In this document: positions 4,952 to 21,927 of the stretch, piece by piece
Numbering within the stretch: position 1 is the first letter of the stretch
Layout of the letters: each line of letters opens with the position of its first letter
NCBI GenBank assembly: GCA_027459505.1
Contig: DAIDIE010000017.1
Coordinates: forward strand, 1 to 60,527
DNA: 60,527 nucleotides
Direction: 5' to 3'
Source: Acidobacteriota bacterium
GTDB taxonomy: Bacteria > Acidobacteriota > Terriglobia > Terriglobales > SCQP01
Position numbers and translations under genes: made by a program
The notes under the pieces: generated by a model
Told to the model about the DNA's origin: nothing
The model's database searches: none
The model's input: only the letters and a program-made list of their open reading frames with translations

Positions 4952-5998
4952 ATGGCGGTCACCAAGAGCAGAACGCGACATCTGGGGTGGCTCGGAATCC
5001 TGCTGTTTCTGGCCATGCCCGTTTGGGCGCAACGCATGCCGGCCCCCTCGGTGGGCCCTTCGGTGGCTTGGCTCGGCAAGGCTAAAGCGCCCGCTTCCGC
5101 CTATGCCGGCACGGCTACTTGTAAAAACTGTCACAGCGCGAGGTATGCCGAGTTTTCCAAAACCGCGCATGCCCATGCCACCGTCGCGGGTCATACCTAC
5201 CTGCACGGCTGCGAAGCCTGCCACGGTCCCGGCAAAGCCCATGCCCAAGCCATGGAGGCGGCGGGCGGCAGCGATGCCAAGGTCCTGGCGGCCCTGAAAA
5301 GTGCCCCCATCTGGGCTTTCCAGGGTACGCCCCAGCAGAACGCCGCCGTCTGCCTGACCTGCCACATCAGCAGCAAAATGCAGGAAGGCTTCCAGCACTC
5401 CACCCACTTGGCCCACGGCGTGGCCTGCCAGAACTGCCACTCCGCTCACCTGGTCAACCCGTTGCCCAAGCATCCCGCCTATGCCCAGGAGGCCATGTTC
5501 CAGGTGCCACGGCTCCCGCAGCAGATTGCCTGGCTCAAATCCGGCCAGTTGCGCGCGCCCCAACCGGACTTGTGCTTTAGCTGCCACCGCGGCGTCCAGG
5601 CCAAGTTCGCCCTCCCGGTGCATCACCGCGTCCCCGAAGGGTTGCTGAAATGCACCGATTGCCACAACCCCCACGGCACCCCACAGCAGGCCAACCTGCG
5701 CGAGATCGGCTGGGAGACGTGTGAGCGCTGCCATGTGGAAAAGCGCGGCCCTTTCATGTACCCGCATCCCGCGGTCCAGGTGGGCGGCTGCGTCGCCTGC
5801 CATAACCCCCACGGCACCATCAACGCCTTCTTGATCAAGCGGCGCGACACGCGCACCGTTTGCCTGCAATGCCATACCGGTTTCCATGGCCAGGACGGAG
5901 TTCCCCATGGCCGCTTAGGGTTCCAGACCAGTGGAACCTGCGTTCGCTGCCACGCCATGGTGCATGGCTCCAACTTTGATCCAACGTTGCTGCGCTAA
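4952..5998 (+). CDS. Decaheme c-type cytochrome, MtrA/DmsE/PioA family
   Basis: Periplasmic decaheme cytochrome of the type that inserts into an outer-membrane porin to carry electrons across the outer membrane. Ten CXXCH haem motifs start at residues 57, 87, 134, 159, 208, 234, 257, 280, 304 and 330 of 348, the count and spacing of the MtrA/DmsE family. A signal peptide ends at about VWAQ (residue 27). The short N-terminal extension is more like MtrA/DmsE than the long PioA. GAGGAG at 4942-4947 precedes the ATG. The next gene, 24 bases on, is the matching porin. The direction of electron flow cannot be read from the sequence. Confidence 0.93.
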   Translation: MAVTKSRTRHLGWLGILLFLAMPVWAQRMPAPSVGPSVAWLGKAKAPASAYAGTATCKNCHSARYAEFSKTAHAHATVAGHTYLHGCEACHGPGKAHAQAMEAAGGSDAKVLAALKSAPIWAFQGTPQQNAAVCLTCHISSKMQEGFQHSTHLAHGVACQNCHSAHLVNPLPKHPAYAQEAMFQVPRLPQQIAWLKSGQLRAPQPDLCFSCHRGVQAKFALPVHHRVPEGLLKCTDCHNPHGTPQQANLREIGWETCERCHVEKRGPFMYPHPAVQVGGCVACHNPHGTINAFLIKRRDTRTVCLQCHTGFHGQDGVPHGRLGFQTSGTCVRCHAMVHGSNFDPTLLR

Positions 5999-6022
5999 TC
6001 GCGCCAACTCGAGGGGTGATTT

Positions 6023-8029
6023 ATGAAGCTGAAAAAGGCTCTTTGGCCGTTGGCCTTGTTGGTTCCGCTGGCGTCGCCGCTGCTTGGCCAGGACAGTTCC
6101 GGCAATGGCGTAACCTGGGGCAACTTCCAAACCGAGGGTTCGGTAACCGCCGCCTACCGCTTTGCCGATGTGCGCGGCTTCCGCCCGCAATACCAGCAGA
6201 TGTTCGACCTGTTCAATGGCCTGCGCCTCGATGATTTCCGCATCGATGGCAATGCCAAGCCGGGCACGTCGGCCTTCAGCGATGGCTTTGAATTGCAGGC
6301 GACCGGGCTGGGCGGCGATCCCTTTGAAACCGTCCAACTCGGCGTCACCAAGCACAACCTGTACGACTTTCGCGCCGATTGGCGGCAGGATCACTACTTC
6401 TTCAACCAGAATGACGCCTTCGTCTGGCCGGGAGGGCAGCCAGGCCTGACTCCCAACCAGAATTGGGACACCGTGCGCAAGCTGGGTTCTGCCGCTCTCA
6501 CCCTGCACGCCACCAATCAACTGCGCCTGTTCTTCCACATGGAGCATGCCGCCGATAGTGGCAATATCTACGCCACCCAGTCGCCCGACTTCCTCGGTGC
6601 GCCCGATTTCTGGGGCTTCTACGCCCGCGGCAACCCCTTCGTGTTGTTCGAGCCCCTGCGCGACAACAGCAACGAATGGCTGGGTGGTTTCGACTACACC
6701 GATCAGGGATGGACCTTCCATCTGGGTGCGGGCTACCAGATGCTTGATGAGACCGTCCCGTTCAGCAACATCACCTCTCCGCAAGTCAGCATCGACGGGC
6801 TCATTAAAGGAAACTCCACTGACGTGCTGCTGAATCTGGCGCAGTCGGAGGCGCGCCGCCTCACCAGTCCGGTGGGGGATTTCTCCTATACCGGAGCTCT
6901 GACCCCCGATCTGACCTATCGCGGTCAATTAAATGTCTTCGACTTCAAAGGACCGGCCAACTTTGTCCAGAACTTCAATGGCGTGGCGCCGGCCAACACG
7001 GCCAATACTTCGAGCATCACCTACGCCATTTCGCAGCAGGGAACGGCGCAGGTCTCGGCGCCTGAAGTGCAGCTCTCACAGGGCTTGGACTATACCGTCA
7101 ACTCCTGGCTCTCCACCGACATCTTCTACTCCTTCTACCACCTGAAAAGTGAAGCGAGCGGGAGCTACTACAGCCTCTTTAATGGCACCCCCACCAGCAA
7201 TACCGATCAGACCGATTGGCGCATCGGCATGCAGAACCTGACCTTCGCGTTGAACATTACGCCCTGGTCCAACCTGGTTGTGCGGCCGGGCATTCACCTG
7301 ATGAAAAACAATGTCGAGAGCGTCTCCGGCGGCGAAGCTGACCCGGCGCTCACGCTGACGACCAAGACCATCATGCCGGAGTTGAGCCTGTTCTACAGCC
7401 CAGTAAAGAACGTCACCCTGCGCGGCGACGTGCATAGCTATGACGCCGGCACATCCTACTTCGCCATCTCCCCGCACACCCAAAACGGGGGACATTTGCA
7501 GGCCAAGTGGCAGATCAATGACCGCTTCAGCCTCGACGATTCAGTGCAAATCCAGAACGCAAAACTGCTGGACACCGCGTTCGTCGACCGCGTCCGGGTC
7601 AACTCCACCGCATTGACCTTTAACCTGAATAGCTGGGCGAATCTCTTCGCGGGGTTCACCTACGACAGCGAATTCGACTCGGGGCAAATCCAGTACATTC
7701 GCGGCACCCCGCCTCTCGCCGACTCGCTGCGCGAGCAGACGGTGAACCGGGTCATCCAGGGCGGCTTTGAAATCAAGCCCGTATCGCGCTTTGGTGTCCG
7801 CTTTACCGGTAACTACGACCATACCTCCGGCATCGGACAAGTTAGCGGCGAGCCACCCAGCGATGGACCCGTCACTTGGCCATTAGCCACGGGAACGGCC
7901 TACCTGGACCTGCCCACGGTGGGCCGCTTTTCAGTGGATGTGCAGCGCACGTATTACATCCAGCAGATCTTTGCCGGAGACAACTTCTCCGCCAATGTCT
8001 TGACCCTGCGCTGGACCAGGAACTTCTGA
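6023..8029 (+). CDS. MtrB/PioB-type outer-membrane beta-barrel porin of a porin-cytochrome conduit
   Basis: A 668-residue predicted beta-barrel that would sheathe the decaheme cytochrome in the outer membrane. A signal peptide (MKLKKALWPLALL to LLGQ) is followed by alternating amphipathic strands rich in Tyr/Trp/Asn turns and by a C-terminal Phe (TLRWTRNF), the usual barrel-insertion signal. Length matches MtrB/PioB, and the gene lies 24 bases after its decaheme partner with a GAGGGG box before the ATG. The N-terminal CXXC of Shewanella MtrB is absent, which is closer to PioB. Family assignment rests largely on partner and length because these barrels diverge quickly. Confidence 0.85.
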   Translation: MKLKKALWPLALLVPLASPLLGQDSSGNGVTWGNFQTEGSVTAAYRFADVRGFRPQYQQMFDLFNGLRLDDFRIDGNAKPGTSAFSDGFELQATGLGGDPFETVQLGVTKHNLYDFRADWRQDHYFFNQNDAFVWPGGQPGLTPNQNWDTVRKLGSAALTLHATNQLRLFFHMEHAADSGNIYATQSPDFLGAPDFWGFYARGNPFVLFEPLRDNSNEWLGGFDYTDQGWTFHLGAGYQMLDETVPFSNITSPQVSIDGLIKGNSTDVLLNLAQSEARRLTSPVGDFSYTGALTPDLTYRGQLNVFDFKGPANFVQNFNGVAPANTANTSSITYAISQQGTAQVSAPEVQLSQGLDYTVNSWLSTDIFYSFYHLKSEASGSYYSLFNGTPTSNTDQTDWRIGMQNLTFALNITPWSNLVVRPGIHLMKNNVESVSGGEADPALTLTTKTIMPELSLFYSPVKNVTLRGDVHSYDAGTSYFAISPHTQNGGHLQAKWQINDRFSLDDSVQIQNAKLLDTAFVDRVRVNSTALTFNLNSWANLFAGFTYDSEFDSGQIQYIRGTPPLADSLREQTVNRVIQGGFEIKPVSRFGVRFTGNYDHTSGIGQVSGEPPSDGPVTWPLATGTAYLDLPTVGRFSVDVQRTYYIQQIFAGDNFSANVLTLRWTRNF

Positions 8030-8041
8030 TTGGAGGAAACC

Positions 8042-8377
8042 ATGAAGCCCATCACCTGCTATTCGCTTGCCGCTCTGCTCGCCTTGGCGCCCGCCGCTTG
8101 GGCCGCCGGGCCGGCTCCGGATGCCGCGGCCAGCGCCCCCCTTTATAACCAGAAATGCGCCGTCTGCCATGGCGCCGACGGCGCGGGGCATACGATCCTG
8201 GGCCGCCGTTATCACGCCGATCTGCTCGCTAAAAAGGTGCAGAAAAAAAGCAATGCTGAGTTGGCGCGCATCATCGCCAAGGGGAAACCGCCCCATATGG
8301 CCGCGTTTGGCGACCAGCTCAGCAAGGAGCAGATCGAAGGTCTGGTGGCCTACATCCGCCACCTGGCCAAGAAGTAG
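8042..8377 (+). CDS. Small periplasmic monohaem cytochrome c (class I)
   Basis: A 111-residue exported class I cytochrome c. It has a signal peptide ending near AAWAAG, one CAVCH haem motif at about residue 38 and a likely distal Met in KPPHMAAFGDQL, in the KGxPPMPxF-like position of this class. The ATG at 8042 is chosen over an upstream TTG at 8030 because GGAGG (8032-8036) has correct spacing to it. It lies 12 bases after the porin gene and is the likely soluble shuttle between the decaheme and an inner-membrane complex. A terminator follows. Confidence 0.9.
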   Translation: MKPITCYSLAALLALAPAAWAAGPAPDAAASAPLYNQKCAVCHGADGAGHTILGRRYHADLLAKKVQKKSNAELARIIAKGKPPHMAAFGDQLSKEQIEGLVAYIRHLAKK

Positions 8378-8424
8378 ACGCGGCAAGAAGCTGTGCCCGA
8401 ACTCGCGGTCCTCCACCCGCGACC

Positions 8425-8466
8425 AACCCCACAACGGCGGTGGCATGCCGTTGTGGGGTTTGTTTT
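8425..8466 (+). terminator. Intrinsic terminator of the decaheme-porin-cytochrome operon
   Basis: A perfect 14-bp stem (AACCCCACAACGGC at 8425-8438 with GCCGTTGTGGGGTT at 8447-8460), an 8-base loop, then TGTTTT. It lies 47 bases after the small cytochrome c gene, so the three upstream genes form one unit and the Rieske/cytochrome b genes a separate one. Confidence 0.9.
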
Positions 8467-8628
8467 CGCGATTAATGATTGCGGCCGGGGCAGAGCACAC
8501 ACCCGCTGCGCGATTTGTCGCTATCTGGGCCGCAGCGCGCAGACGTACTCCCGTCAAAAGGCCCAGCTTAGCTGTTTGGCCCTTGGCATGCACATAGCGC
8601 AGTGAAGCTTTCAAAGAGGTAGGTAGTT
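8467..8628 (+). other. Leader of the Rieske/cytochrome b operon
   Basis: A non-coding stretch between the terminator and the Rieske gene. A GAGG box lies about 8-10 bases before the Rieske ATG at 8629. A promoter is expected after the terminator, but no clear -35/-10 pair stands out. Confidence 0.5.
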
Positions 8629-9174
8629 ATGATCCAGACCAACGAAACGGCGGCGCACGAGCATGCCCACACGGAAACTCCGCGGCGGTCTTTTCTCGGT
8701 TGGCTGCTGGGCTTAGGTACGCTGGGAACCGGCGCGGTTCTGTCCATTCCAATCGTGCGATACCTGCTTTCTCCCCTGAGCGCCAAGCAGCCGAATCTGT
8801 GGAGCGATGTCGGGCCGATGGACCACTTTCAGAACCTGACTGCTCCCAAAGCGCAAAACATTACCGTCGTGCGCCGCGATGGCTGGCAGGAGAGCCGTAT
8901 CCAGCAAATGGTCTATGTCCTGCCGAGCGCTCCCGGCGATACGCCCCGCGTTTTGTCCAGCATCTGCCCGCACCTGGGCTGCTCGGTCAGTTGGAGCGAT
9001 GGACTCTTTCGCTGCCCTTGCCATGGTGGCGTGTTTTCTCCCCGCGGTGAGCTGAAAGACGGACCGCCCCGGCGCAGCATGGATTCCCTCCAGGCGCGCA
9101 TCATGCAAGGACGTCTGCAGGTCAAGTTTGAGTACTTCCGGCCATTGCTTCCGAACAAGGTGATCTTGGGGTAA
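8629..9174 (+). CDS. qcrA: Rieske 2Fe-2S protein of a cytochrome bc complex
   Basis: A 181-residue Rieske subunit that takes electrons from quinol at the Qo site and passes them to a c-type haem. The cluster-binding boxes CPHLGC and CPCHGG are intact (about residues 109-114 and 127-132). The N-terminus, PRRSFLGWLLGLGTLGTGA, looks like a twin-arginine signal anchor with a single membrane helix. Only 3 bases separate it from the cytochrome b gene, so the two are co-transcribed. No separate cytochrome c1 gene follows; that role is filled by the fused domain of the next protein. Confidence 0.94.
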   Translation: MIQTNETAAHEHAHTETPRRSFLGWLLGLGTLGTGAVLSIPIVRYLLSPLSAKQPNLWSDVGPMDHFQNLTAPKAQNITVVRRDGWQESRIQQMVYVLPSAPGDTPRVLSSICPHLGCSVSWSDGLFRCPCHGGVFSPRGELKDGPPRRSMDSLQARIMQGRLQVKFEYFRPLLPNKVILG

Positions 9175-9177
9175 GCC

Positions 9178-10623
9178 ATGAACAACAAAAAGCAGCATGC
9201 CGGCTTTTACGGCTGGCTGGAGCGCCGTATCGGCATTGACCAAATGATGCACGAGGCTCTGGATGAGCCCATTCCTGGAGGCGCGCGGCTGGCCTATGTG
9301 TTTGGTTCCGGGTTGTTGTTCCTCTTCCTTTCCCAGGTCATTACCGGCCTGGCGCTGGCGCTCTACTATGTGCCCTCCACAGATCATGCCCACACCACGG
9401 TCGCCTATATCAGCAAGGTGGTGGCCGCCGGCGAGTTCCTGCGTAGCCTGCACGCCTACGGCTCCAGCGCCATCATTGTGGTGCTGCTGCTGCACGTCCT
9501 GCAGACGGTGTTCTATGGCAGCTACAAAGGCCGCCGCGAGTTGCTGTGGATCTCCGGCTGCGTCCTGGCGACGTTAATGTTCGCCATGGCCTTCACGGGC
9601 TACCTTTTGCCGTGGGATCAGAAGGCCTACTTCGCAACCGCGGTCGGCACCAACATTGTCGGGGAGGTGCCCGGCATTGGCGGTAAGCTCGAGTTGCTCA
9701 TGCGCGGCGGACCCGCCCTCGGCACGCTGACCATCTCGCGCTTTTTTGTCGCTCACGTGCTGCTCATTCCGGGAATGATCTTTGCCTTCGTGGCGCTGCA
9801 CGTCTTCTTTTTCCGCAAGGCGGGAGCGGCGGGGCCGATCAGCGCCAAGCCTCGCAATTCAGGTCTGCCTACGACTCCCTTCTATCCTGGTCAGGTCATC
9901 ATCGATATGGCCTTCGCTCTGGCGCTGATCGCCGTCTTGTCGCTGCTGGCTCATTTCTTCCCCTTCCCCGTTGGCCCTCGCGCCAATCCCGCCGACAGCA
10001 CTTACCTGCCGCGTCCGGAGTGGTATTACATCCCTGTCTTCCAGTGGCTTAAGTACTGGGAAGGCAGCCGCGCCTTTTTGGGAGTCGTGCTGATCCCTGC
10101 TGTGATTGTCCTGTTGTTCGTACTGTTGCCCTTCCTTGATCGCGGCGCCGAGCGGCGGCCCTGGCGCCGTCCCATCCCGGTGGGCGGCGTTGTGATCGTT
10201 CTCCTGGGACTTGCAGGGCTTGGTTGGGCGAGCCATTCGCAGGACACCAAAGACCCCAGCATCGCCTCCCAATTGCATCGCCAGGACGAGGCCGTCGTCC
10301 AGTACATGAAGCAGCCCTTTAAACCCGAGGAGAGTGGTGGCGGTGCGACCGCCACTGGTGAGGCAAAGGAATCCGCCAATCCCATGGTGCAGGCGGGTGA
10401 AAAGCTGTACCAGGACAACCTGTGCAGCGCCTGTCATGGCGTGGCAGGAAAAGGCGGTATCGCCGCGCCGCTCTCTGGTATTGGCTCCCGGATGTCTTCA
10501 CAACAATTACAGACGCTGTTGACCAACCCGACCCCGAAGATGACCGGCGGAGGCATGCCTCCGGTGCCCCTCAAAGATGGGCAGTTGAAGCAGTTGGTGG
10601 CCTATCTGATGAGCCTGAAGTAG
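9178..10623 (+). CDS. qcrB: Cytochrome b with fused C-terminal cytochrome c domain (bc complex)
   Basis: A 481-residue quinol-oxidising cytochrome b. The N-terminal part has the four-helix b-haem core with His ligands in RSLHAYGSS, LLLHVLQ, AHVLL and ALHVF, and a subunit-IV-like half with the Qo-site motif PEWY. After a helix near residue 345 and a Gly/Ala linker comes a class I cytochrome c domain with CSACH (about residues 418-422) and the probable distal Met in GGGMPP. Haem c is therefore covalently part of the b subunit. Adjacency to the porin-cytochrome operon suggests the bc complex exchanges electrons with that conduit, but this is inferred from context. Confidence 0.93.
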   Translation: MNNKKQHAGFYGWLERRIGIDQMMHEALDEPIPGGARLAYVFGSGLLFLFLSQVITGLALALYYVPSTDHAHTTVAYISKVVAAGEFLRSLHAYGSSAIIVVLLLHVLQTVFYGSYKGRRELLWISGCVLATLMFAMAFTGYLLPWDQKAYFATAVGTNIVGEVPGIGGKLELLMRGGPALGTLTISRFFVAHVLLIPGMIFAFVALHVFFFRKAGAAGPISAKPRNSGLPTTPFYPGQVIIDMAFALALIAVLSLLAHFFPFPVGPRANPADSTYLPRPEWYYIPVFQWLKYWEGSRAFLGVVLIPAVIVLLFVLLPFLDRGAERRPWRRPIPVGGVVIVLLGLAGLGWASHSQDTKDPSIASQLHRQDEAVVQYMKQPFKPEESGGGATATGEAKESANPMVQAGEKLYQDNLCSACHGVAGKGGIAAPLSGIGSRMSSQQLQTLLTNPTPKMTGGGMPPVPLKDGQLKQLVAYLMSLK

Positions 10624-10933: not shown

Positions 10934-12973
10934 CTAGAAATCTTGCAAGCGCTCCGCTGGGAGCGCCGCGCGCAGCGCGTTCAACACGGCAATCACGTCG
11001 ATGATCTCCTGGGCAATCGCTCCGGCCAGCGGGGGCAAGTGTCCGCTCGCGGCGGCTATCATACCGGCGCCGCTCAGAATCATGCCTCCAATCGCGCTCT
11101 GCAGCATGATGGCGCGCATGCGGCTGCCGATGTGGAGCAACTCGTCCACTTTGCCCAGCATGGGTTCCAGGATCACGGCGCCGGCTGCTTCGGCAGTGAT
11201 GTCGCTGTTTTGTCCCATGGCTACGCCAACCGTCGCCGCCAGCATGGCCGGCGCGTCGTTGATACCATCGCCCACAAACAGCGTGGGCCCCTGCTTGGTG
11301 CGTTCCTGAACGATGCGCAGCTTGTCCTCCGGACTAAGTCCTCCCCGCGCATCGCGAATACCCACAGCCCGCGCCAGTTGCTCTACTGCCTGATCGCGGT
11401 CGCCGGAGAGAATCATCAGATCCTGCACCTTGTGCCTGGGGTGCAGATGATGAACAAAGGCCCGGCTCTCGACCCGCGCCCGGTCGTGGAAGCGGAACAG
11501 CGCCGCCAGGCGCCCCTGCACCAGCACTACGCACTCCATGCCGATACCGCTCTCCGGCAGCTTTGCTTCCATCTCCGGCGTGAGGCGGCCGCGGCCCGTC
11601 ACCAGCGTCTGGGAACCCTCCACATTGCCGCTCAGCCCCTGCCCCGGCCGCTCGCTGACGTTCAGCACCGGACGGAGCTTCAGGCGCCGCTGCCGCGCTG
11701 CCTGCTGGATCGCGGTGGCCAGCGGATGACGCGAATACTGTTCCAAGCTGGCGGCCAGCCGCAACACCTCCTCAGGCGCGATCTGTCCCAGCGGCACGAT
11801 CTCCGCCAGTTCCGGCTCACCATGCGTCAGCGTTCCGGTTTTATCGAACAGCATGGTGCGAATGGTCCCGACTTGCTCCAAAATGACCGGCTTCTTGATG
11901 ACAATTCCGCGTTTGGCCGCCAGTGAAATCGATCCGATGATGGCGATGGGAATGGCCAGCAGCAGCGGGCAGGGTGTGGCGATCACGATGACGGCCAGAA
12001 AGCGTTCCGGTTTTCCGCTCAGGATCCAGCCGGCTAGCGCCACCAGCGTGGCAAAAGGAGTGAACCACGCGCCCAACCGGTCCGCCAAACGGCGGATGTG
12101 CGGTGGGTTGGCCTCCGCCTGACGCATCACTTCCATGATCCGGGCGAAACGCGAGTCTCTCGCACGCTTCTCCGCGATGATGAACAGCGCGTTCTCTTCG
12201 TTGAGCGCGCCCGAGATCACCTGTGAGCCCGCCGTCTTGCGAATGCGGAAGGGCTCGCCGGTGAGGAACGACTCGTCCATGGTCCCTGAGCCCGATTGCA
12301 CTACTCCGTCCACCGGGCAGATCTCGTGCGGAAAGATCACCAGGCGGTCTCCGGCCCGTACCGTATCCACGGCGATGTCGTTGACGTGGATATCGCGCGT
12401 CGTCTCTCCGCTCACTTTGTGGGCGATGCTGGGGGTGCGCCGCGCCAGTGCGGTCAATACCGACGAGGCGCGGTGAGTGGCATAGGTTTCAAGCGCCTGC
12501 CCGCCGGAGAGCATCAGGACAATCATGGCCGCTACCAGGGGTTGTCCCATCAGGGTCGCGGTCACAATGGATATTCCCGCCAAAAAGTCGGCGCCAAACT
12601 CCCGCCGCAGCGCCTGCCGGCTGAGCTCATAAATCAGCGGCACGCCGGCGATCAGCAGCGCGACCCACAAGGGCAGTTCGGCCAGTTCCAAGCGCGTGTG
12701 CAGCGCAAACCGCAGCAGCAGGTACGCGCCGATCGCGGCCACGCTGAACAGAGCTGAGACGATATTCCACACGGAGGAGAGCCGCAGCAGGAAATGCGGC
12801 AAGCGCAAGCTTCCGCCGCTCACGTTCCCGGTGGCCGTGTCCTGCTCTGAGGCGGCGCCAGCCACTTCATCGCTATCCGCCCTGTCCGCCATATCCGCCC
12901 GCCCGTCGATGGGTATCACCGCCGGCGGGAGATTGGTCTCGTCTTTGCCTGGAGCGGGCGCGCGGGAACTCAC
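10934..12973 (-). CDS. P1B-type heavy-metal-translocating ATPase with a CPL membrane motif
   Basis: A 679-residue inner-membrane metal-efflux type P-ATPase. It shows TGE (238-240), the transmembrane TPCPLLLAIP (CPL at 335-337), the phosphorylation site DKTGT (377-381), the P1B-typical HP (416-417) and the hinge GDGIND (568-573). It lacks an N-terminal HMA metal-binding domain; its first 50 residues are hydrophilic and Asp/Ala-rich. CPL is not the CPC/CPH/SPC of the copper, zinc or cobalt groups, so the metal cannot be named. The GTG start overlaps the ASPIC/UnbV stop as GTGA, making it the third gene of the pentahaem operon. Confidence 0.9.
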   Translation of the reverse strand: MSSRAPAPGKDETNLPPAVIPIDGRADMADRADSDEVAGAASEQDTATGNVSGGSLRLPHFLLRLSSVWNIVSALFSVAAIGAYLLLRFALHTRLELAELPLWVALLIAGVPLIYELSRQALRREFGADFLAGISIVTATLMGQPLVAAMIVLMLSGGQALETYATHRASSVLTALARRTPSIAHKVSGETTRDIHVNDIAVDTVRAGDRLVIFPHEICPVDGVVQSGSGTMDESFLTGEPFRIRKTAGSQVISGALNEENALFIIAEKRARDSRFARIMEVMRQAEANPPHIRRLADRLGAWFTPFATLVALAGWILSGKPERFLAVIVIATPCPLLLAIPIAIIGSISLAAKRGIVIKKPVILEQVGTIRTMLFDKTGTLTHGEPELAEIVPLGQIAPEEVLRLAASLEQYSRHPLATAIQQAARQRRLKLRPVLNVSERPGQGLSGNVEGSQTLVTGRGRLTPEMEAKLPESGIGMECVVLVQGRLAALFRFHDRARVESRAFVHHLHPRHKVQDLMILSGDRDQAVEQLARAVGIRDARGGLSPEDKLRIVQERTKQGPTLFVGDGINDAPAMLAATVGVAMGQNSDITAEAAGAVILEPMLGKVDELLHIGSRMRAIMLQSAIGGMILSGAGMIAAASGHLPPLAGAIAQEIIDVIAVLNALRAALPAERLQDF

Positions 12974-14694
12974 AAGCTCTCCTCTTCACGGATCTTAAGC
13001 CATTGCCGTGCAGGCACGTTGTGCGCCACTTGCGTGCGCCCGCTCGGCCACTCGATGCGGAGCTGGTCCGCTTTCCGGGCCGTTCCCAGGCCGAAATGCA
13101 GTTCCAGCGCGTGTTGCGACAGGTACGATCCCTGGCTGCCTACCGCCTGGGTCTGCGTCCGCCCGCCACTGGTGACCTGGACGCGGGCGCCAATCCCGTT
13201 GCGATTGGATTTCTTTCCCTGTAAGGCAATCTTGAGCCAATTTCCCCCTTCCGCGCCGTCGGCCCGCCACAGCTTCAGTGGGCCGCGATTGCAGGAGACG
13301 GCGAAGTCGAGATCGCCGTCGCGGTCGTAATCGGCTACTGCCAGACCGCGCGCGTTGCAGGGCTGATCGAATGCCGGCGCGATCTGGCCCGCCACATTGT
13401 GGTAGCCGTCTTTGCTCCAGCGAAACAGAAATGGATGCTGCGGCACCAGCCGGTGGTGGTCCTGGGCGTCTTCAAGCGTGTTGCCGTTGACCACGACCAG
13501 GTCGGGTTGACCGGCATTATCGATATCCACGAACGCGCTCCCCCAACTCACCATCGGCAGCGTGATATACGCCAGTTGCATGGGATCGGCAATATCGGTG
13601 AAAGTCGGCTGCCCATCCAGCGACGCCTTCAGCAGGTTTTGGTAAAGCGAAGCGCCCTGGCCCAGCCAGTGCGCCACGAAGATGTCAAGCACGCCGTCGC
13701 CGTCCACATCCGTGACCGCCAATCCCATGCTTCCTTTGTTTTCCGAAAGCCAGCTCTGGGTACTGCGGTCGATGAACCGGCCGCCACCGTGGTTGGCGAA
13801 AAAGCGGTTCATGCTGAGGTCGTTGCCCACATACAGGTCGCAGTTGTGGGTGTGCCCAAACGGCGCGATGGTCACGGTCAGGCTGCGGCCATCGCTATCC
13901 GCCACGCCCGCCCGCCCGGTAACATCCGTGAAGGTTCCATTGCGGTTGTTGCGGAACAGCCGGTTCGGCTGCGCCGAAAATGAACGCGGGTTGAGCGCCG
14001 GCGGCACCACCAGGTTGTATTGGTGTATGGGGCTGAGGTGCAGGGACGCGATATCGCGCGGATAGTCGACGTAATGGGCAACATACAAGTCGAGCCATCC
14101 ATCGTTGTCGAAATCGAACCAGACCGCGCCCGTGCTCCACCCGGAAGTGAAGACTCCGGCGGATTTGGTGACGTCTTTAAATCGCCCATTGCCTTCGTTG
14201 TGATACAACCGGCAGCCGTCCTGGCCAGTGACGAACAGGTCCAGATAGCCGTCGTTGTCGTAGTCTCCCCAAAAGGCGCCCATGCCGAAATGCAGCAACT
14301 CCAGTCCCGCCTCTTCGGTAACATCGGTAAAGCTGCCATCGCGGTTGTTGCGGTAAAGGCGGTTGCCGGGGCCGCTGGGCTTGCCGCCAAACGGACCCGG
14401 CTGGTTGACGACGTACAGGTCGGGGTAGCCGTCATTGTCGTAATCGCCCCAAGCCAGGCCCGATCCCATGTCCTCCGGCAACTGTCCGGTGCGGGCGCCG
14501 TTGGAATGGACAAAGTTGATGCGGGCTGTGGCGGTGGCGTCCCGGTAAACGCCGTGCCCGGCAGACAGCTGCGGAGAAAGCGGTGCGCCGCCCGGCGCGC
14601 CTGCGCTTTTGCTCTGGGCGGCTTTTTTTTGGCAACCGACCGCCGACGCTAATGCCGCTCCGGTCAACATCCGAAAACAATCGCGACGATTCAT
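12970..14694 (-). CDS. FG-GAP/VCBS-repeat lipoprotein with C-terminal ASPIC/UnbV domain
   Basis: A 574-residue exported protein with a lipobox-like ASAVGC at residues 14-19, so probably a lipoprotein. It then has seven FG-GAP/VCBS-type blades; six carry a Ca-binding DxDxDGxxD-like loop (WGDYDNDGYPDLYV, FVDIDNAGQPDLVV, DYDRDGDLDFAV) and the fourth is degenerate. The last 70 residues form an ASPIC/UnbV domain (GIGARVQV, GSQGSYLSQ, HFGLG, IEWPSGR). These proteins are predicted beta-propellers of unknown function. It sits 3 bases after the pentahaem cytochrome gene and overlaps the ATPase gene, so it is co-expressed with both. Confidence 0.9.
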   Translation of the reverse strand: MNRRDCFRMLTGAALASAVGCQKKAAQSKSAGAPGGAPLSPQLSAGHGVYRDATATARINFVHSNGARTGQLPEDMGSGLAWGDYDNDGYPDLYVVNQPGPFGGKPSGPGNRLYRNNRDGSFTDVTEEAGLELLHFGMGAFWGDYDNDGYLDLFVTGQDGCRLYHNEGNGRFKDVTKSAGVFTSGWSTGAVWFDFDNDGWLDLYVAHYVDYPRDIASLHLSPIHQYNLVVPPALNPRSFSAQPNRLFRNNRNGTFTDVTGRAGVADSDGRSLTVTIAPFGHTHNCDLYVGNDLSMNRFFANHGGGRFIDRSTQSWLSENKGSMGLAVTDVDGDGVLDIFVAHWLGQGASLYQNLLKASLDGQPTFTDIADPMQLAYITLPMVSWGSAFVDIDNAGQPDLVVVNGNTLEDAQDHHRLVPQHPFLFRWSKDGYHNVAGQIAPAFDQPCNARGLAVADYDRDGDLDFAVSCNRGPLKLWRADGAEGGNWLKIALQGKKSNRNGIGARVQVTSGGRTQTQAVGSQGSYLSQHALELHFGLGTARKADQLRIEWPSGRTQVAHNVPARQWLKIREEESL

Positions 14695-14697
14695 TCC

Positions 14698-16650
14698 TTA
14701 CCGCCCCTGTGCGATCGCCGCGGCGCCGGGATGGCCCACGGGCAGGAAAAGGGTCGAGCTGGCCACGGTGATGATTGGTACCTTGGCGCGCACCTGCGGC
14801 GGCAGCAGCAGACGCTGGGACTGGTCATTGAAGCGCCGGTAGAGCAGGTTGAGCTCGCACTTGAACGGCCCCTGACTGTTTCGCGGGATAGGGAATTGGA
14901 ACAGTTTGGTGTCGCTCATGCCCGGCAGGATCGCGCGCTTGTCACGTCCCCCCACCGCGTTCCACAACGAGTGCGTGTAAATGGGCTGCCCATTGCGGTC
15001 CAGGAGATAGGAGCGGAACTGAATAGTGTCCCCGGTTACGGCATTGTCTTTGTTTAAATAGCCGGTCTGGTAGACCACCTTGCCAGTGGAGACATCGGTT
15101 ACCTGCAACTCCAGCCACGCCTGCGTTACATCCAGCGGACCAGTGGGGAAAGCGTGGCCTACTTTGCTGTTAATGACAACCGCGCGCACGTGGGCCGTCC
15201 CTCCGGGTTCAATCGTTCCTTCGGGGCTCATTTCCAGCGAGACCACCGAACCGCGTGGCCAACGGTCGGCGATCTCCGGAATGACGGTCTTTCCCTGCAT
15301 CCAGCGCAGCACCAGTTGCTGCTGCCGTTGTGCTCCCGGCAGATGGAGCAACGATGGCATGAAGCTGTTGGAGGCCAGAATGCGGTGGTCGTGAATCATT
15401 CCCTGTGCGTTGCGCGCCGGGTCATCGGAGGGGCGCAGCCGCATATGGCAGTCCTGGCATTGCAGGTTCGCTTTCTTGTTGGTGTGCCAGGGACCGTTCT
15501 TCCAGTCGTCATATTGATCCTGCAGTTGCACGAAACCCCACCCGTTTTCGTGCGCGTCAATGTACTGCTTATGGCACGAGCCGCAGAATACGGCCGTCTG
15601 CGATGGTTTCACGTTGTAATCATGATTGTGCAGTGCCGGATCGAGCCGGATCAGCGCGGAGGAGACGCGTAATAGAACCGGGTTGCTGGATTCTTCAAAC
15701 AGATAAGGCGTGGGCGGGTCGACCACATAGTTGGCGTTTCCCCGTGTCGCTAAATGACGCAAACTGTGGCAAAACGCGCATGAACTGCCTTGCCGTGCCT
15801 CCGGTTGAACTCCCACATGCGGGGTGAACCCGCCGACCAGCGTGAGCGGCTCATGGCAGCCCTCGCAGTAGTGCACCGCCTCCGGTCCGCGTGCGTGAAT
15901 GTAGTTGGTGCGCACCGCCTGATAAAAAATGTCGGTGGCGGAGTAGTGATGCGCGCCCGGCAGCCACTCCCGGTAAATCTGCGCATGACAGCGCTGGCAC
16001 GATTGCGAATTGTTCAGCAGCGCGGGCGCCACCATCAGATTTCCGGCAGTGCGCGCATTGGAGGGGCTGAAATCGCCGTGAATGCGCGGTTGCGACCGCA
16101 CCTTGGCCAACACCAGCCCGCCCACAAGTACCGCAACCAGTCCGGCGCCTACCGGCACTAACAAACCCACCCCGCGCTTTTGCGGGAAATGGGCGCGCAG
16201 CAGTCCGGCGACGATGTGGTACACAATCAGCGCGCCGGCCCCGAATCCCAGCCAAAGATGGACCTCGTGCAAGCGGTAAGGGGTGTCGCTCCCAAATAGG
16301 CCAACCCCGATCAGCGCCACGCCTGTCGCCGCCAGCGCTGCGATGCCCACTCCCGCCAGAATGGGGGGCTGGTACCAGCGGCTAGGTTGATATTTCTGCC
16401 CATGGCGTGCATGCCGCCAAAACAGCCGCGCCAGCAAGGGAATCGCCACCAACCCCGCCACGCTGTGCAGTACCAGCGCCCATTGCCCCGCCAGACTCAG
16501 GGGGCGCAGCCAGGGATACAGGCCGGTGAACAGCAGGACCAAAAAGAATCCCGAAGCCAGGCGCAGGCGCATCAGGGAACGGGGGAGCGGCTTGGCGGGT
16601 TCCGAGGGTGGTTGCTGAGAGGGTGGTTGAGGGGGTTGGGGGGCGCTCAT
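14698..16650 (-). CDS. Membrane-anchored pentahaem cytochrome c with a multi-helix N-terminal domain
   Basis: A 650-residue protein joining an integral-membrane domain to an exported multihaem domain. After a Pro/Gln-rich start there are about five membrane helices (about 32-50, 57-75, 98-118, 130-150, 163-182) with His at 62, 128, 131 and 145, which suggests bound b-haems. Five CXXCH motifs follow at 218, 262, 291, 356 and 398 in a cytochrome-c554-like context (SCQRCHAQIYREWLPGAHH). The last 200 residues lack haem motifs and look beta-rich. A quinol dehydrogenase feeding periplasmic cytochromes is the simplest reading, but it is inferred. It is the first gene of a three-gene operon. Confidence 0.85.
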   Translation of the reverse strand: MSAPQPPQPPSQQPPSEPAKPLPRSLMRLRLASGFFLVLLFTGLYPWLRPLSLAGQWALVLHSVAGLVAIPLLARLFWRHARHGQKYQPSRWYQPPILAGVGIAALAATGVALIGVGLFGSDTPYRLHEVHLWLGFGAGALIVYHIVAGLLRAHFPQKRGVGLLVPVGAGLVAVLVGGLVLAKVRSQPRIHGDFSPSNARTAGNLMVAPALLNNSQSCQRCHAQIYREWLPGAHHYSATDIFYQAVRTNYIHARGPEAVHYCEGCHEPLTLVGGFTPHVGVQPEARQGSSCAFCHSLRHLATRGNANYVVDPPTPYLFEESSNPVLLRVSSALIRLDPALHNHDYNVKPSQTAVFCGSCHKQYIDAHENGWGFVQLQDQYDDWKNGPWHTNKKANLQCQDCHMRLRPSDDPARNAQGMIHDHRILASNSFMPSLLHLPGAQRQQQLVLRWMQGKTVIPEIADRWPRGSVVSLEMSPEGTIEPGGTAHVRAVVINSKVGHAFPTGPLDVTQAWLELQVTDVSTGKVVYQTGYLNKDNAVTGDTIQFRSYLLDRNGQPIYTHSLWNAVGGRDKRAILPGMSDTKLFQFPIPRNSQGPFKCELNLLYRRFNDQSQRLLLPPQVRAKVPIITVASSTLFLPVGHPGAAAIAQGR

Positions 16651-17049
16651 TAATCTCCTTGCGGGGCCGGTTCCCGTGAACCTGCCTTCAGGCCTCCGAA
16701 GGGAGGCGATGCTGCTCTTGGGCCGTCAATCGTTTTGCGCCGCCGGCTGGTCCGTTTAGCGGGCGTCTGCCCCTGCATTCCTGCTGCCGGATCAGGAGCG
16801 GACCGCTCAGCCACAATCCGCAACAGCGGTCTGTGTCGGTTGGCGCTTTGATTGCAAGTGGTGTTATGGCACGCACCTTCAGGAGCCATTTGCCGCTGGA
16901 TAGGGGGTTGGCCGCTGTGATGTAGCTCACACCGCCAGCGTCTAGTTGATTTAAAGTACGAACCTACCTTGGACTGAATAGCCATCGTGGGCCTGGGCAA
17001 GTTGACAACGGGTGTGATTGCACAAGGAGTGAGAAGGGGGGAAGTACCT
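16651..17049. other. Divergent regulatory region between the pentahaem operon and the Crp/Fnr gene
   Basis: About 400 bases between oppositely oriented starts. Besides the Crp-type palindrome at 16916-16931 it contains TTGAT half-sites near 16846 and 16945 that do not complete an FNR box. Short open frames across it have no recognisable motif and lie over the promoter. Confidence 0.7.
16916..16931. promoter_or_regulatory. Perfect Crp-type operator TGTGATGTAGCTCACA
   Basis: TGTGA-N6-TCACA is an exact match to the core of the classical CRP operator. It lies about 120 bases upstream of the Crp/Fnr gene and about 265 bases upstream of the divergent pentahaem operon. The adjacent regulator keeps Arg196, Glu197 and Arg201 in the SRESVCR recognition helix, corresponding to the Arg180, Glu181 and Arg185 with which E. 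coli CRP reads TGTGA. Autoregulation and control of the divergent operon are inferred. Confidence 0.75.
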
Positions 17050-17769
17050 ATGCCTGCCATGGACGAAAAGAAACGCCCAAACCGCTGTGTTCTGTGTAGC
17101 CGCAAGGCGCTCAACGGTTTTTGCCAGCTCTCGGAGCCCGCGTTGCGGATATTGGGCGACAGCGGAACGTCGGTGACCTTGCGCGGCCGCATGCCGCTGT
17201 TTGTGCAGGGTTCGCCGGTGCAATCGGTTTACGTGGTCTGTTCCGGCCGTATCAAGCTGTTTTCCAACAGTCCGGCGGGGCGGACGGTCATCACCCGTTT
17301 TGTCGGTCCCGGTGCGATTCTCGGAAGCGGTGAGTTGATCGGTCAGGGCGAGGCCGCTACCTTCCAGGCCAGCGCCGAAGCCATGCCCAGCGCCGAAGTG
17401 CGCGCCATTCCGGTGGCGGTATTCCGGCAGATGGCAAGGGATTACCCCGAGGTTGAGGTGCGCTTAGGCCAGCAACTGGCGCGCGAATGTGAATCCGCGT
17501 ATCGCCGTATCCGCCTGCTCGGCCTGGGCCGCTCGGTGTTGGAGCGGGTCGCCGGCTATCTCCTGGAAGACAGTCAGGAAGGCCTGCTGGCGCCCCGTAC
17601 GCAGGAAGAGGTAGCCCAGGAGCTGGGCCTCTCCCGCGAAAGCGTGTGCCGCGCCCTGGCGCAGTTTAAGACCGCAGGCGCGATCCGCATTCAGCGCGGC
17701 CGCTGGACCATTACCGATCGCGGCGCATTGGAGGAGTTCTCCCGCAATCCCGTCGTCGGTGCCGCATAA
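17050..17769 (+). CDS. Crp/Fnr-family transcriptional regulator
   Basis: A 239-residue regulator with an N-terminal cyclic-nucleotide-binding-type beta roll (about 35-125), a dimerisation helix and a C-terminal winged helix (TQEEVAQELGLSRESVCRAL, 184-203). The recognition residues R196, E197 and R201 match the E. coli CRP pattern, not the FNR E-S-R pattern. An N-terminal cluster C13-x2-C16-x8-C25 plus C64 could bind an Fe-S cluster or serve as a redox sensor, but the spacing differs from E. coli FNR. The ATG at 17050 follows a purine-rich AAGGGGGGAAG box; a GTG at 16987 would add 21 residues. It is divergent from the pentahaem operon and has a perfect cognate-looking operator upstream. Confidence 0.88.
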   Translation: MPAMDEKKRPNRCVLCSRKALNGFCQLSEPALRILGDSGTSVTLRGRMPLFVQGSPVQSVYVVCSGRIKLFSNSPAGRTVITRFVGPGAILGSGELIGQGEAATFQASAEAMPSAEVRAIPVAVFRQMARDYPEVEVRLGQQLARECESAYRRIRLLGLGRSVLERVAGYLLEDSQEGLLAPRTQEEVAQELGLSRESVCRALAQFKTAGAIRIQRGRWTITDRGALEEFSRNPVVGAA

Positions 17770-19533: not shown

Positions 19534-20199
19534 GGAAACGATCAGTGCAGGCCTTGGTTTGGAAGTTGATGATTGACAACGTCGCGGTAAAAACAGCAGA
19601 TACCGTCATTGCATGCACCACTCCAAAGGCCAAATGGGTCGCAGTGAGATATTTTGTGGGCACGAGAATGGCAGCGGTCACTCAATTGCGGACTGCGAGT
19701 TCCTAACCGTGGCTTCAGCGAAAAGTTAGTCGTTGCGAGGTGCGTCTTTTCGCGCTTTCAGTGCGCGATAAAACCCACTGTTTGTTGCCAGACGCACAGT
19801 GCAAATGTGCAGAAATGCATTGCCCAAGCTGGCTTCCATAGGGGAAACTAGAGACTCTTCCTCTTTCACGACGCTGTCTGGCAGACGGCGTGCACGCTGA
19901 CGGGGAACCGCAAATAAGGAAGCCAGCGCCCAGCATGTTTCATTTCGCTCCAACCAGCGCCCCCCCGACAAGTTCCGCAGCAACCCTGCTGTCCGGCTGT
20001 TGTCGATGTCGCCTCTCTCTCGCGCGCTAAGCAACCGATATCCGGATTAACAAGTTATCCCTGGCGTCGGAGATGACGCCGAAAACAGCGTCCAGGTACA
20101 GGCGGGGGTGTAGACACACCCAGTGAGGCCAGCGCTGCAAGACCAGAATGAGCCCGGCTTTCCGGGTGGCGGGGAACGACCCCGATTTTGCTGAACTAT
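19534..20199. other. Intergenic region upstream of the nitrite/sulfite reductase gene, with hairpins
   Basis: About 670 bases with no credible gene; a 102-codon minus-strand frame at 19726-20034 has no family signature and ends in the KDAPRND-type translation typical of intergenic repeats. Two small hairpins lie just before the reductase: GGGTGT-AGAC-ACACCC at 20106-20121 and CCCGG-CTTT-CCGGG at 20153-20166. They may be part of a structured leader, but I could not match it to a known riboswitch class. Confidence 0.5.
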
Positions 20200-21927
20200 A
20201 TGATTTCCATTGAACTTCCCATATCCGACCGGCTTTCCGCGGAAACCGTAGAGGCTGAGATTGCCGCTTTTGCCGACAATGTGACGCGCTTCCGCGCCGG
20301 GCAAGTCGAGGCGCGTGAGTTTCAGGTGTACCGTTTGCACCATGGCATCTATGGCCAGCGCCAGCCGGACGTACACATGGTGCGGGTCAAGATTCCCGGC
20401 GGCCACCTCAATGCCGCGCAGGTACGCGCGCTGGGCGATGTGGCGCGCGATCATGGTTCAGGCCGCGGCCATTTCACGACGCGCGAAAATTGCCAATTTC
20501 ATTACGTACCGCTGGAAGAAGTTCCGGTGCTGATGCGGCGTCTGGCCGAAGCGGACCTGACCACGCGCGAAGGTTGCGGCAATGTCGTGCGGAACGTGAC
20601 GGGCTGCGCCCTGGCAGGCGATTGCCCCGCCGAGGCTTTTGACATCACTCCCTACGCCAAGCTGGTGACGCGCGCCTTCCTGCGCCATCCGGAATTTCAG
20701 GAGCTGCCGCGCAAATTCAAGATCGCCTTCTCCGGCTGCGAACAGGATTGCGGCCTGGGCGCGATTAACGATATCGGGCTGATCGCGCGGACCCGGACGC
20801 AAGACGGCGAACTGCAGCGGGGCTTCAAAGTGATGGTTGGCGGCGGACTGGGTTCGCTGCCCACCGCTGCCGCCGTCATCAGCGAGTTTCTGCCCGCGGA
20901 CGACCTGGTTGCGGCGATCACCTCGATTCTCCGCGTCTTCAACGCGCATGGGGAACGCGCCAACCGCATGAAAGCGCGTCTGAAATTTGTCCTGCGCGGC
21001 AAAGGCGCGGCGGAATTGCGCCGCCTCATCCTGGCCGAAAATCCCGCGCTCGATTGGGATCGTTCCGCCGTGGATAGTTCCGGTCGCGGGCAACAACAGC
21101 CGGAACAGCTTTACCAGATCAACCAAGCCGCCGACAGCCATCAATCCTGGCGCCGGCGCAACGTCTGGCGCCATCCTGAAACCGGCAAACACCTGGTATG
21201 GATTAACCTCAACGTGGGTACGCTCACGGTGCGGCAGTTCTATGGCTTGGCGGATCTTCTGGAAGCCTACCCGGACCTGCGCCTGCGCGTTGCTCCCTCG
21301 CAAAATATGGTCCTGCTCGGGGTCGAGAGCGCCGATCTGGGCAACATTGGCCAGGTGCTCGACAACCTCGAGTTGGTGCGCCCGGTGGCCGGACACGTTT
21401 CCGATGTCACCAGTTGCCCGGGCACGACGACCTGCAACATCGGCATTACGCGTTCGCAGAGCATGGGCGAGGAGCTGACCAACGTGCTCGCTTCCGAGCG
21501 TGATCCCGAGCTCAGTGCCTTGAGTATCAAAATCAGTGGATGCCCCAACTCCTGCGGCCAACACCACATTGCCGACATCGGCTTCTACGGCAAATCGCAA
21601 AAGGTGAACGGGGTGGCGTTGCCCTATTACCTGATGATGCTGGGCGGTGGGGTGGGCCCCGAGGGTGCGCAATTTGGCGTCCCACTGGTGAGCGTCCCGG
21701 CGCGTCAAGTGCCGCAGGCGCTGCTTACGTTGTTCCGCCACTATCAGCAGCATCGGCTTGCTGGGGAGGGCTTCCGCGCATTCTGCAAGCGTGTGGGTTC
21801 ACCGTCGTTGAAGCAGGCGCTGCAGCCGGTGCTGGATCCCACTCTGCTCGGCGAGGCCGCCCGCATTGACTGGGGTGAGACGCAGCCGTTCGCTCTAGCG
21901 GTAGGTGAAGGCGAGTGCTCGGTGTAA
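20200..21927 (+). CDS. Sirohaem-dependent nitrite/sulfite reductase (ferredoxin type)
   Basis: A 575-residue assimilatory reductase performing the six-electron reduction of nitrite or sulfite with a coupled sirohaem and 4Fe-4S cluster. The duplicated ferredoxin-like halves are present, and the cluster ligands are C406-x5-C412 (CPGTTTC) and C448-x3-C452 (CPNSC). FTTRENCQFHYV in the first half is typical of the family. The ATG at 20200 is chosen over an upstream TTG; no strong ribosome-binding site is visible. No nitrate, sulfate-activation or sirohaem-synthesis gene is in the window, so nitrite and sulfite cannot be told apart. Confidence 0.93.
   Translation: MISIELPISDRLSAETVEAEIAAFADNVTRFRAGQVEAREFQVYRLHHGIYGQRQPDVHMVRVKIPGGHLNAAQVRALGDVARDHGSGRGHFTTRENCQFHYVPLEEVPVLMRRLAEADLTTREGCGNVVRNVTGCALAGDCPAEAFDITPYAKLVTRAFLRHPEFQELPRKFKIAFSGCEQDCGLGAINDIGLIARTRTQDGELQRGFKVMVGGGLGSLPTAAAVISEFLPADDLVAAITSILRVFNAHGERANRMKARLKFVLRGKGAAELRRLILAENPALDWDRSAVDSSGRGQQQPEQLYQINQAADSHQSWRRRNVWRHPETGKHLVWINLNVGTLTVRQFYGLADLLEAYPDLRLRVAPSQNMVLLGVESADLGNIGQVLDNLELVRPVAGHVSDVTSCPGTTTCNIGITRSQSMGEELTNVLASERDPELSALSIKISGCPNSCGQHHIADIGFYGKSQKVNGVALPYYLMMLGGGVGPEGAQFGVPLVSVPARQVPQALLTLFRHYQQHRLAGEGFRAFCKRVGSPSLKQALQPVLDPTLLGEAARIDWGETQPFALAVGEGECSV

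What the first reader, a model, noticed from the sequence alone, without database searches (positions are those of the whole stretch)
16916..16931. Perfect TGTGA-N6-TCACA operator beside a regulator with CRP-type recognition residues
Seen: an exact 10-base palindromic core between the divergent pentahaem operon and the Crp/Fnr gene. By base count about 0.06 such sites are expected by chance in a window this size. The regulator has S-R-E-S-V-C-R in the recognition helix, matching the Arg/Glu/Arg triad of E. coli CRP. Its N-terminal Cys13, Cys16, Cys25 and Cys64 suggest redox rather than plain cAMP input. Inferred: CRP-like DNA specificity coupled to a possibly Fe-S or redox sensor controlling the respiratory operon and itself.
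Basis: partly seen in the sequence, partly recalled or inferred. Interest (0 to 1): 0.7.

Follow-up and report, generated by a model that had tools for sequence, protein, structure and literature searches.

The report
Four-cysteine regulator with CRP-type operator
A perfect CRP-style DNA switch site lies between a cytochrome operon and the gene of a regulator that carries four co-conserved cysteines instead of a cAMP pocket; comparison with about 120 related regulators indicates that the site is real and that the family probably senses oxygen or redox state through a metal (likely iron-sulfur) centre built differently from the textbook FNR sensor.

Summary
The site TGTGATGTAGCTCACA is at 16916-16931, the only exact match in the window. 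Alone it is weak evidence: the genome has 4 exact sites against about 2-3 expected, though all four lie in divergent promoter regions. Relatives make the case. Upstream of 91 regulators with the same four cysteines, TGTGA-N6-TCACA is the commonest N6 palindrome (16 exact, 32 with at most one mismatch; control 0 and 1); spacing N6 is strict and 15 site pairs lie exactly 22 bp apart. The CRP recognition residues Arg180/Glu181/Arg185 are invariant; the cAMP-contacting residues are absent. The three N-terminal cysteines and Cys64 are present together (91) or absent together (26), with 2 exceptions among 119 homologs, as expected for a four-cysteine metal site. Cys64 lies at CRP position 43, not at the FNR Cys122 position. 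In relatives the sites mark a decahaem-Rieske-cytochrome b operon homologous to window 4952-10623, universal stress proteins, HSP20 and rubrerythrin. Best reading: an autoregulated redox/O2 sensor of the CRP/FNR superfamily with CRP-type operators and a relocated fourth ligand. Binding, metal and signal are untested. New variant of a known kind.

The parts
16916..16931 (.). CRP-type operator TGTGATGTAGCTCACA
   Evidence: Exact palindrome, only one in the window; same motif is the commonest N6 palindrome upstream of homologous regulators
17050..17769 (+). Crp/Fnr-family regulator, 239 aa; Cys13, Cys16, Cys25, Cys64; recognition helix SRESVCR
   Evidence: PF00027 and PF13545 above cut-off; residues by alignment
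14698..16650 (-). Pentahaem cytochrome, likely first gene of the divergent operon
   Evidence: Five CXXCH; PF22113 match; one-mismatch sites upstream of two orthologs
12970..14694 (-). FG-GAP/ASPIC-UnbV (CRTAC1-like) protein, 4 bp after the pentahaem gene
   Evidence: PF13517 and PF07593
10934..12973 (-). Heavy-metal P-type ATPase, overlaps the CRTAC1-like gene by 4 bp
   Evidence: TIGR01525 above cut-off; 65% identical homolog in the site-rich island of G035
4952..10623 (+). Decahaem cytochrome - unassigned 668-aa protein - cytochrome c - Rieske - cytochrome b operon; site-marked in relatives, no recognisable site here
   Evidence: Ten CXXCH in the first gene; homologs upstream-marked in 19 of 29 cases vs 1 for the control; matching operon in the G035 island

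Best explanation
The site is a genuine operator of the adjacent regulator. The regulator belongs to an autoregulated CRP/FNR-superfamily group that reads the CRP palindrome TGTGA-N6-TCACA but does not bind cAMP. Its input is most likely a four-cysteine metal centre, probably a [4Fe-4S] cluster, held by C-x2-C-x8-C in the N-terminal extension and by a fourth cysteine (Cys64) at CRP position 43 / FNR position 72. On the known CRP jelly roll that is the strand next to the one that carries Cys122 of E. coli FNR. Loss or modification of the cluster by O2 or NO would change dimerisation or the DNA-binding domain and so switch the regulator gene itself and the divergent pentahaem-CRTAC1-P-type ATPase operon. 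Shown by computation: the operator footprint, strict N6 spacing, recognition residues, absence of cAMP-binding residues, all-or-none conservation of the four cysteines, and sites upstream of respiratory and stress genes in relatives. Inferred: direct binding, cluster type, signal, and whether it activates or represses.
For: Upstream of 91 four-cysteine homologs: 16 exact and 32 with at most one mismatch vs 0 and 1 for the reversed palindrome; N6 42 hits vs 0-5 for other spacings; 15 pairs at 22 bp. R180/E181/R185 invariant, E72/R82 absent, FNR C122 not conserved. Cysteine triad and Cys64: 91 both, 26 neither, 2 discordant (after removing the two E. coli references); 10-11 changes on the tree, 5-6 of 6 supported independent pairs agree, while a control cysteine does not; sensor-only paralogs show the same all-or-none pattern. 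Sites upstream of pentahaem orthologs and decahaem homologs, 19 of 29 vs 1. G040: 32 of 33 exact sites intergenic. Site number follows homolog number across 60 genomes, rho 0.58 vs 0.00 for the control. No class III nucleotide cyclase found.
Against: The window's regulator is only up to about 38% identical to any homolog found. In its own genome the motif is barely enriched, the homolog-site correlation is not significant within its family, and the decahaem operon lacks a site. No structure: the single-sequence model is unusable. Homologs without the four cysteines keep the same recognition helix, so the operator does not prove the sensor.
Confidence: 0.62

Rival explanations
1. The four cysteines form a thiol/disulfide switch or bind zinc, so the regulator senses oxidants or metals without an Fe-S cluster; the operator and target assignment stay the same. 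A metal input would fit the P-type ATPase in the operon.
For: Co-conservation shows a shared four-thiolate site but not which metal. Cys-based redox switches are known in the superfamily, e.g. FixK2 (PMC12937710). P-type ATPase in the operon.
Against: The arrangement (three N-terminal cysteines plus one in the beta-roll) resembles FNR, and marked genes in relatives are respiratory, stress and anaerobic functions rather than metal resistance alone.
Confidence: 0.25
2. The operator is real but is read mainly by another Crp/Fnr protein of the genome (C39:73684-73899 or C45:84909-85124).
For: Two other Crp/Fnr-type helix-turn-helix proteins are over the cut-off in the genome; the C39 protein has an RExxxR helix, VRELVSR.
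Against: Homologs of the VRELVSR type have no such site upstream of their own genes (0 of 10 in the group 'none_other'), unlike the four-cysteine group; the C45 protein has an FNR-type helix, SAETVSR. The site lies beside the gene of a protein with the CRP triad.
Confidence: 0.08
3. A classical cAMP-dependent CRP.
For: CRP operator and CRP recognition residues.
Against: Residues that contact cAMP (E72, R82, S83, T127, S128 of CRP) are not conserved here (S, F, Q, A, Y) or in the group; no class III cyclase found in a 97% complete genome (other cyclase classes were not searched).
Confidence: 0.03
4. The palindrome is a chance occurrence.
For: Four exact sites per genome is close to the 2-3 expected by chance.
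Against: It lies in the one place where relatives carry the same site, upstream of the four-cysteine regulator; about 0.0002 exact sites are expected in 400 bp, and one-mismatch sites lie upstream of two orthologs of the divergent gene.
Confidence: 0.02

Closest known systems
E. coli / Aliivibrio fischeri FNR ([4Fe-4S] O2 sensor)
   Same: CRP/FNR fold family, three N-terminal cysteines plus one in the beta-roll, no cAMP-binding residues, respiratory targets in relatives
   Different: Fourth cysteine at FNR position 72 (CRP 43) instead of 122; C-x2-C-x8-C in most members instead of C-x2-C-x5-C; CRP-type recognition helix (R-E-x3-R) and TGTGA-N6-TCACA instead of TTGAT-N4-ATCAA
E. coli CRP (CAP)
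   Same: Recognition residues R180/E181/R185 and the operator TGTGA-N6-TCACA
   Different: No cAMP-contacting residues; N-terminal cysteine triad and Cys64 absent from CRP
HcpR of Desulfovibrio
   Same: Predicted operator TTGTGA-N6-TCACAA, identical to the CRP consensus, in a redox/energy-metabolism regulator that is not a classical cAMP CRP (PMC545781)
   Different: Main target there is hcp; HcpR of Porphyromonas is a haem-dependent NO sensor (PMC12750200, abstract); no four-cysteine motif is described in the passages read
Bacillus-type Fnr
   Same: A second known Fe-S arrangement within the superfamily (PMC12937710)
   Different: There the cluster is in the C-terminal DNA-binding domain; here no cysteine follows the recognition helix

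Membership tests
CRP/FNR superfamily | Cyclic-nucleotide-binding-like beta-roll plus Crp-type helix-turn-helix | tested here: met
   PF00027 53.1 bits (cut-off 27.5), PF13545 58.1 bits (cut-off 27)
cAMP-dependent CRP | cAMP-contacting residues E72, R82, S83, T127, S128 | tested here: not met
   S, F, Q, A, Y in the window protein; E72 and R82 absent throughout the group
cAMP-dependent CRP | R180/E181/R185 and TGTGA-N6-TCACA operator | tested here: met
   Invariant triad in 91 of 91; operator footprint
E. coli-type FNR | Three N-terminal cysteines | tested here: met
   C13, C16, C25; spacing x8 rather than x5
E. coli-type FNR | Fourth ligand at the Cys122 position | tested here: not met
   Arg in the window protein; mostly Asn, Lys or Arg in the group
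E. coli-type FNR | Binding site TTGAT-N4-ATCAA | tested here: not met
   0 exact and 2 one-mismatch sites upstream of 91 homologs
E. coli-type FNR | O2-labile [4Fe-4S] cluster | not testable with these tools
   Needs purified protein; only co-conservation of four cysteines shown
Bacillus-type Fnr | Cysteine cluster at the C-terminus | tested here: not met
   No cysteine after residue 200 in P0001
HcpR | CRP-identical consensus operator | tested here: met
   Same core palindrome (PMC545781)
HcpR | Regulates hcp; haem/NO sensing | not tested
   hcp was not searched for; haem binding is not testable here

The most novel reading that the evidence does not exclude
A third architecture of Fe-S sensor in the CRP/FNR superfamily: C-x2-C-x8-C plus a fourth ligand on the neighbouring beta-strand (CRP position 43), coupled to CRP-type operators often arranged as 22-bp tandems, acting as master switch of a low-oxygen regulon (decahaem-Rieske-cytochrome b operon, universal stress proteins, HSP20, hydrogenase maturation) in a bacterial lineage that appears to be Acidobacteriota.
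Probability: 0.45. Interest if true: 0.72.

Novelty: new variant of a known kind. Interest (0 to 1): 0.6.

Why it matters
A 2026 structural review of the superfamily discusses only two Fe-S FNR arrangements, N-terminal and C-terminal (PMC12937710). A widespread group with a different fourth ligand and CRP-type DNA reading would be a further solution to the same problem and would separate sensor type from DNA specificity. It also supplies a candidate regulator, operator and target list for low-oxygen responses in this lineage: Acidobacterium capsulatum induces several usp genes near anoxia, and the paper's main text contains neither 'Crp' nor 'transcriptional regulator' (PMC11636273), while universal stress protein genes are among the clearest marked genes here. 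That A. capsulatum belongs to the same group was not tested.

Tried and rejected
Own-genome enrichment as proof: too few sites. The window site at 5120: haem-motif codons. Close orthologs of the regulator: none found above about 38% identity over the full length in 399 genomes of the class, and none in the GTDB contig scan. Upstream regions of the P-type ATPase: no site within one mismatch in 11 homologs, as expected if it is read from an upstream gene. Another common cysteine ('epC' column) as the fourth ligand: present in 51 of 119 and not correlated with the triad. Sigma-70 promoter scan of the intergenic region: nothing. Taxon name: handles are anonymous; Acidobacteriota is my reading of gene content, not a tool result.

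Full report
1. The observation. The sequence TGTGATGTAGCTCACA is at 16916-16931 and is the only exact TGTGA-N6-TCACA in the window. It lies between the pentahaem cytochrome gene (14698-16650, minus strand; CQRCH, CEGCH, CAFCH, CGSCH, CQDCH) and the Crp/Fnr gene (17050-17769, plus strand). Base composition predicts 0.026 such sites per window and a Markov model 0.04, which scales to 1.8-2.7 in the 4.06-Mb genome. The genome has four, and none of the reversed palindrome. With one mismatch allowed there are 30 against 24. So within this one genome the palindrome is not clearly enriched. But all four exact sites lie in divergent intergenic regions: here; between a gene that I read as pyrE and a nitrite/sulfite-reductase-like gene followed by a tetrapyrrole-methylase/CbiX gene; between an O-methyltransferase and an unassigned gene with a signal-peptide-like start; and upstream of an alpha/beta-hydrolase. 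One-mismatch sites are intergenic in 12 of 26 cases against 7 of 24 for the control.

2. Related regulators carry the same operator. I collected 119 homologs from related genomes. Of these, 91 have the N-terminal C-x2-C-xn-C and the cysteine at position 64. In the 350 bp upstream of these 91 genes, the CRP palindrome occurs exactly in 16 and within one mismatch in 32. The reversed palindrome occurs in 0 and 1, the FNR site in 0 and 2. Among all half-sites at N6, TGTGA ranks first, and N6 is the only favoured spacing (42 hits against 0-5). In 15 cases two sites (two mismatches allowed) lie exactly 22 bp apart, which puts a half-site every 11 bp; the window has only one site. Across 60 genomes the number of exact sites rises with the number of homologs (Spearman 0.58; control 0.00), with 356 sites in all against 37 for the control. 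The trend is carried by the sister family f2; in the window's own family it is not significant. The counted homologs include paralogs without the four cysteines.

3. The protein. The equivalents of CRP R180, E181 and R185 are invariant in all 91. The cAMP contacts E72 and R82 are not conserved in the group, and no class III nucleotide cyclase was found in the genome. FNR Cys122 is not conserved. Instead a cysteine stands at the column of CRP Val43 / FNR Arg72. This position is on the beta-strand that neighbours the Cys122 strand in the CRP jelly roll (established fold knowledge, not modelled here). Among 119 homologs the triad and this cysteine are both present in 91 and both absent in 26, with two exceptions; one search prints 27 and one further discordant row because it also counts E. 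coli CRP and E. coli FNR. One of the 26 (L180) keeps part of the triad. The tree needs 10-11 changes, and in supported independent comparisons Cys64 goes with the triad in 5-6 of 6 (sign test p about 0.03-0.06), whereas another common cysteine does not. Truncated sensor-only paralogs beside the full-length gene show the same all-or-none pattern. I take this as good evidence for a shared four-thiolate site and moderate evidence for Fe-S.

4. What is regulated. Orthologs of the pentahaem gene in two other genomes, without an adjacent regulator gene, have GGTGATACCGGTCACA and GGTGATGCCTGTCACA at -169 and -166; five closer orthologs have no site within one mismatch. In G040, which carries one of the closest regulator homologs, 32 of 33 scored exact sites are intergenic. 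Flanking genes include c-type and multihaem cytochromes, a NapC/NirT-like cytochrome, rubrerythrin, universal stress proteins, zinc alcohol dehydrogenases, acetyl-CoA synthetase and a hypF-like gene. In G035, nine exact sites lie within 50 kb with the regulator, several universal stress proteins, HSP20, P-type ATPases and a multihaem - unknown - cytochrome c - Rieske - cytochrome b operon. That operon matches window 4952-10623 gene by gene except for the unassigned 668/714-aa protein (cytochrome b 58%, Rieske 51%), and the ATPase matches window 10934-12973 at 65%. Homologs of the window's decahaem gene have an upstream site in 19 of 29 cases against 1 for the control. From the coordinates I count about 14 genomes in which this gene lies within 8 kb of a regulator homolog. 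In the window itself the decahaem operon is on the same contig but has no recognisable site.

5. Mechanism. Most likely the protein binds the site as a dimer and controls its own gene and the pentahaem-CRTAC1-ATPase operon in response to O2, NO or redox state through a four-cysteine cluster. Direction of control is unknown; the site centre is about 127 bp from one start and 274 bp from the other, and no promoter was recognised.

6. Known and new. CRP-type operators with a non-cAMP redox-related regulator are known: HcpR of Desulfovibrio has the same consensus (PMC545781). Fe-S sensing is known in two arrangements (PMC12937710). The combination, and the relocated fourth cysteine, were not found in the papers searched, but most subscription papers are not held, so absence is weak evidence. 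More distant Bacteroidota homologs, next to cbb3-oxidase accessory and nitrous-oxide-reductase genes, have a cysteine two residues earlier on the same strand; only one of the two has the N-terminal triad, and both have a different recognition helix. I call it a new variant of a known kind.

7. Caveats. The gene calls in other genomes come from a simple codon-bias finder. Upstream regions depend on predicted starts. Homologs are related, so counts are not independent. The window's regulator is divergent (at most about 38% identity to any homolog found over its full length), so transfer of group features to it rests on its own conserved residues: all four cysteines, the recognition triad and its own perfect site. 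Genome handles are anonymous; the assignment to Acidobacteriota is my own reading.

Noticed in passing
L193:1511-2077, L194:62-556, L195:1511-2068, L186:1494-1994, L236:2366-2869: Sensor-only paralogs (about 165-190 aa, no helix-turn-helix) lie directly beside full-length regulators; three keep all four cysteines and two have lost all four. They could form heterodimers that tune the regulator.
   Followed up: partly
Upstream regions of homologs, e.g. L076, L080, L084, L085, L087, L093, L098: Two CRP-type sites exactly 22 bp apart recur (15 pairs), giving a half-site every 11 bp, one helical turn.
   Followed up: partly
L183-L185 (genome G035, 1404000-1462000): A 50-kb island with nine exact sites, many universal stress proteins, HSP20, glycogen enzymes, P-type ATPases and a respiratory operon, reminiscent of hypoxia/dormancy islands of other bacteria.
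   Followed up: partly
window 17050-17769, residue 200: A cysteine inside the recognition helix (SRESVCR), next to the DNA-contacting arginine; rare in the group (also L179, L188). Could be a second, direct redox switch.
   Followed up: no
window 816-4309: Phosphoketolase and acetate kinase genes divergent to the decahaem operon, with no recognisable site between them.
   Followed up: no
L307:2971-3687, L308:2965-3678: Bacteroidota homologs beside ccoG/fixH and nos genes carry a cysteine two residues earlier on the same strand and a different recognition helix (TATE); only L307 has the N-terminal triad.
   Followed up: partly
window 20188-21927: A nitrite/sulfite reductase-like gene close to the regulator; another such gene elsewhere in the genome has one of the four exact sites upstream.
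   Followed up: no
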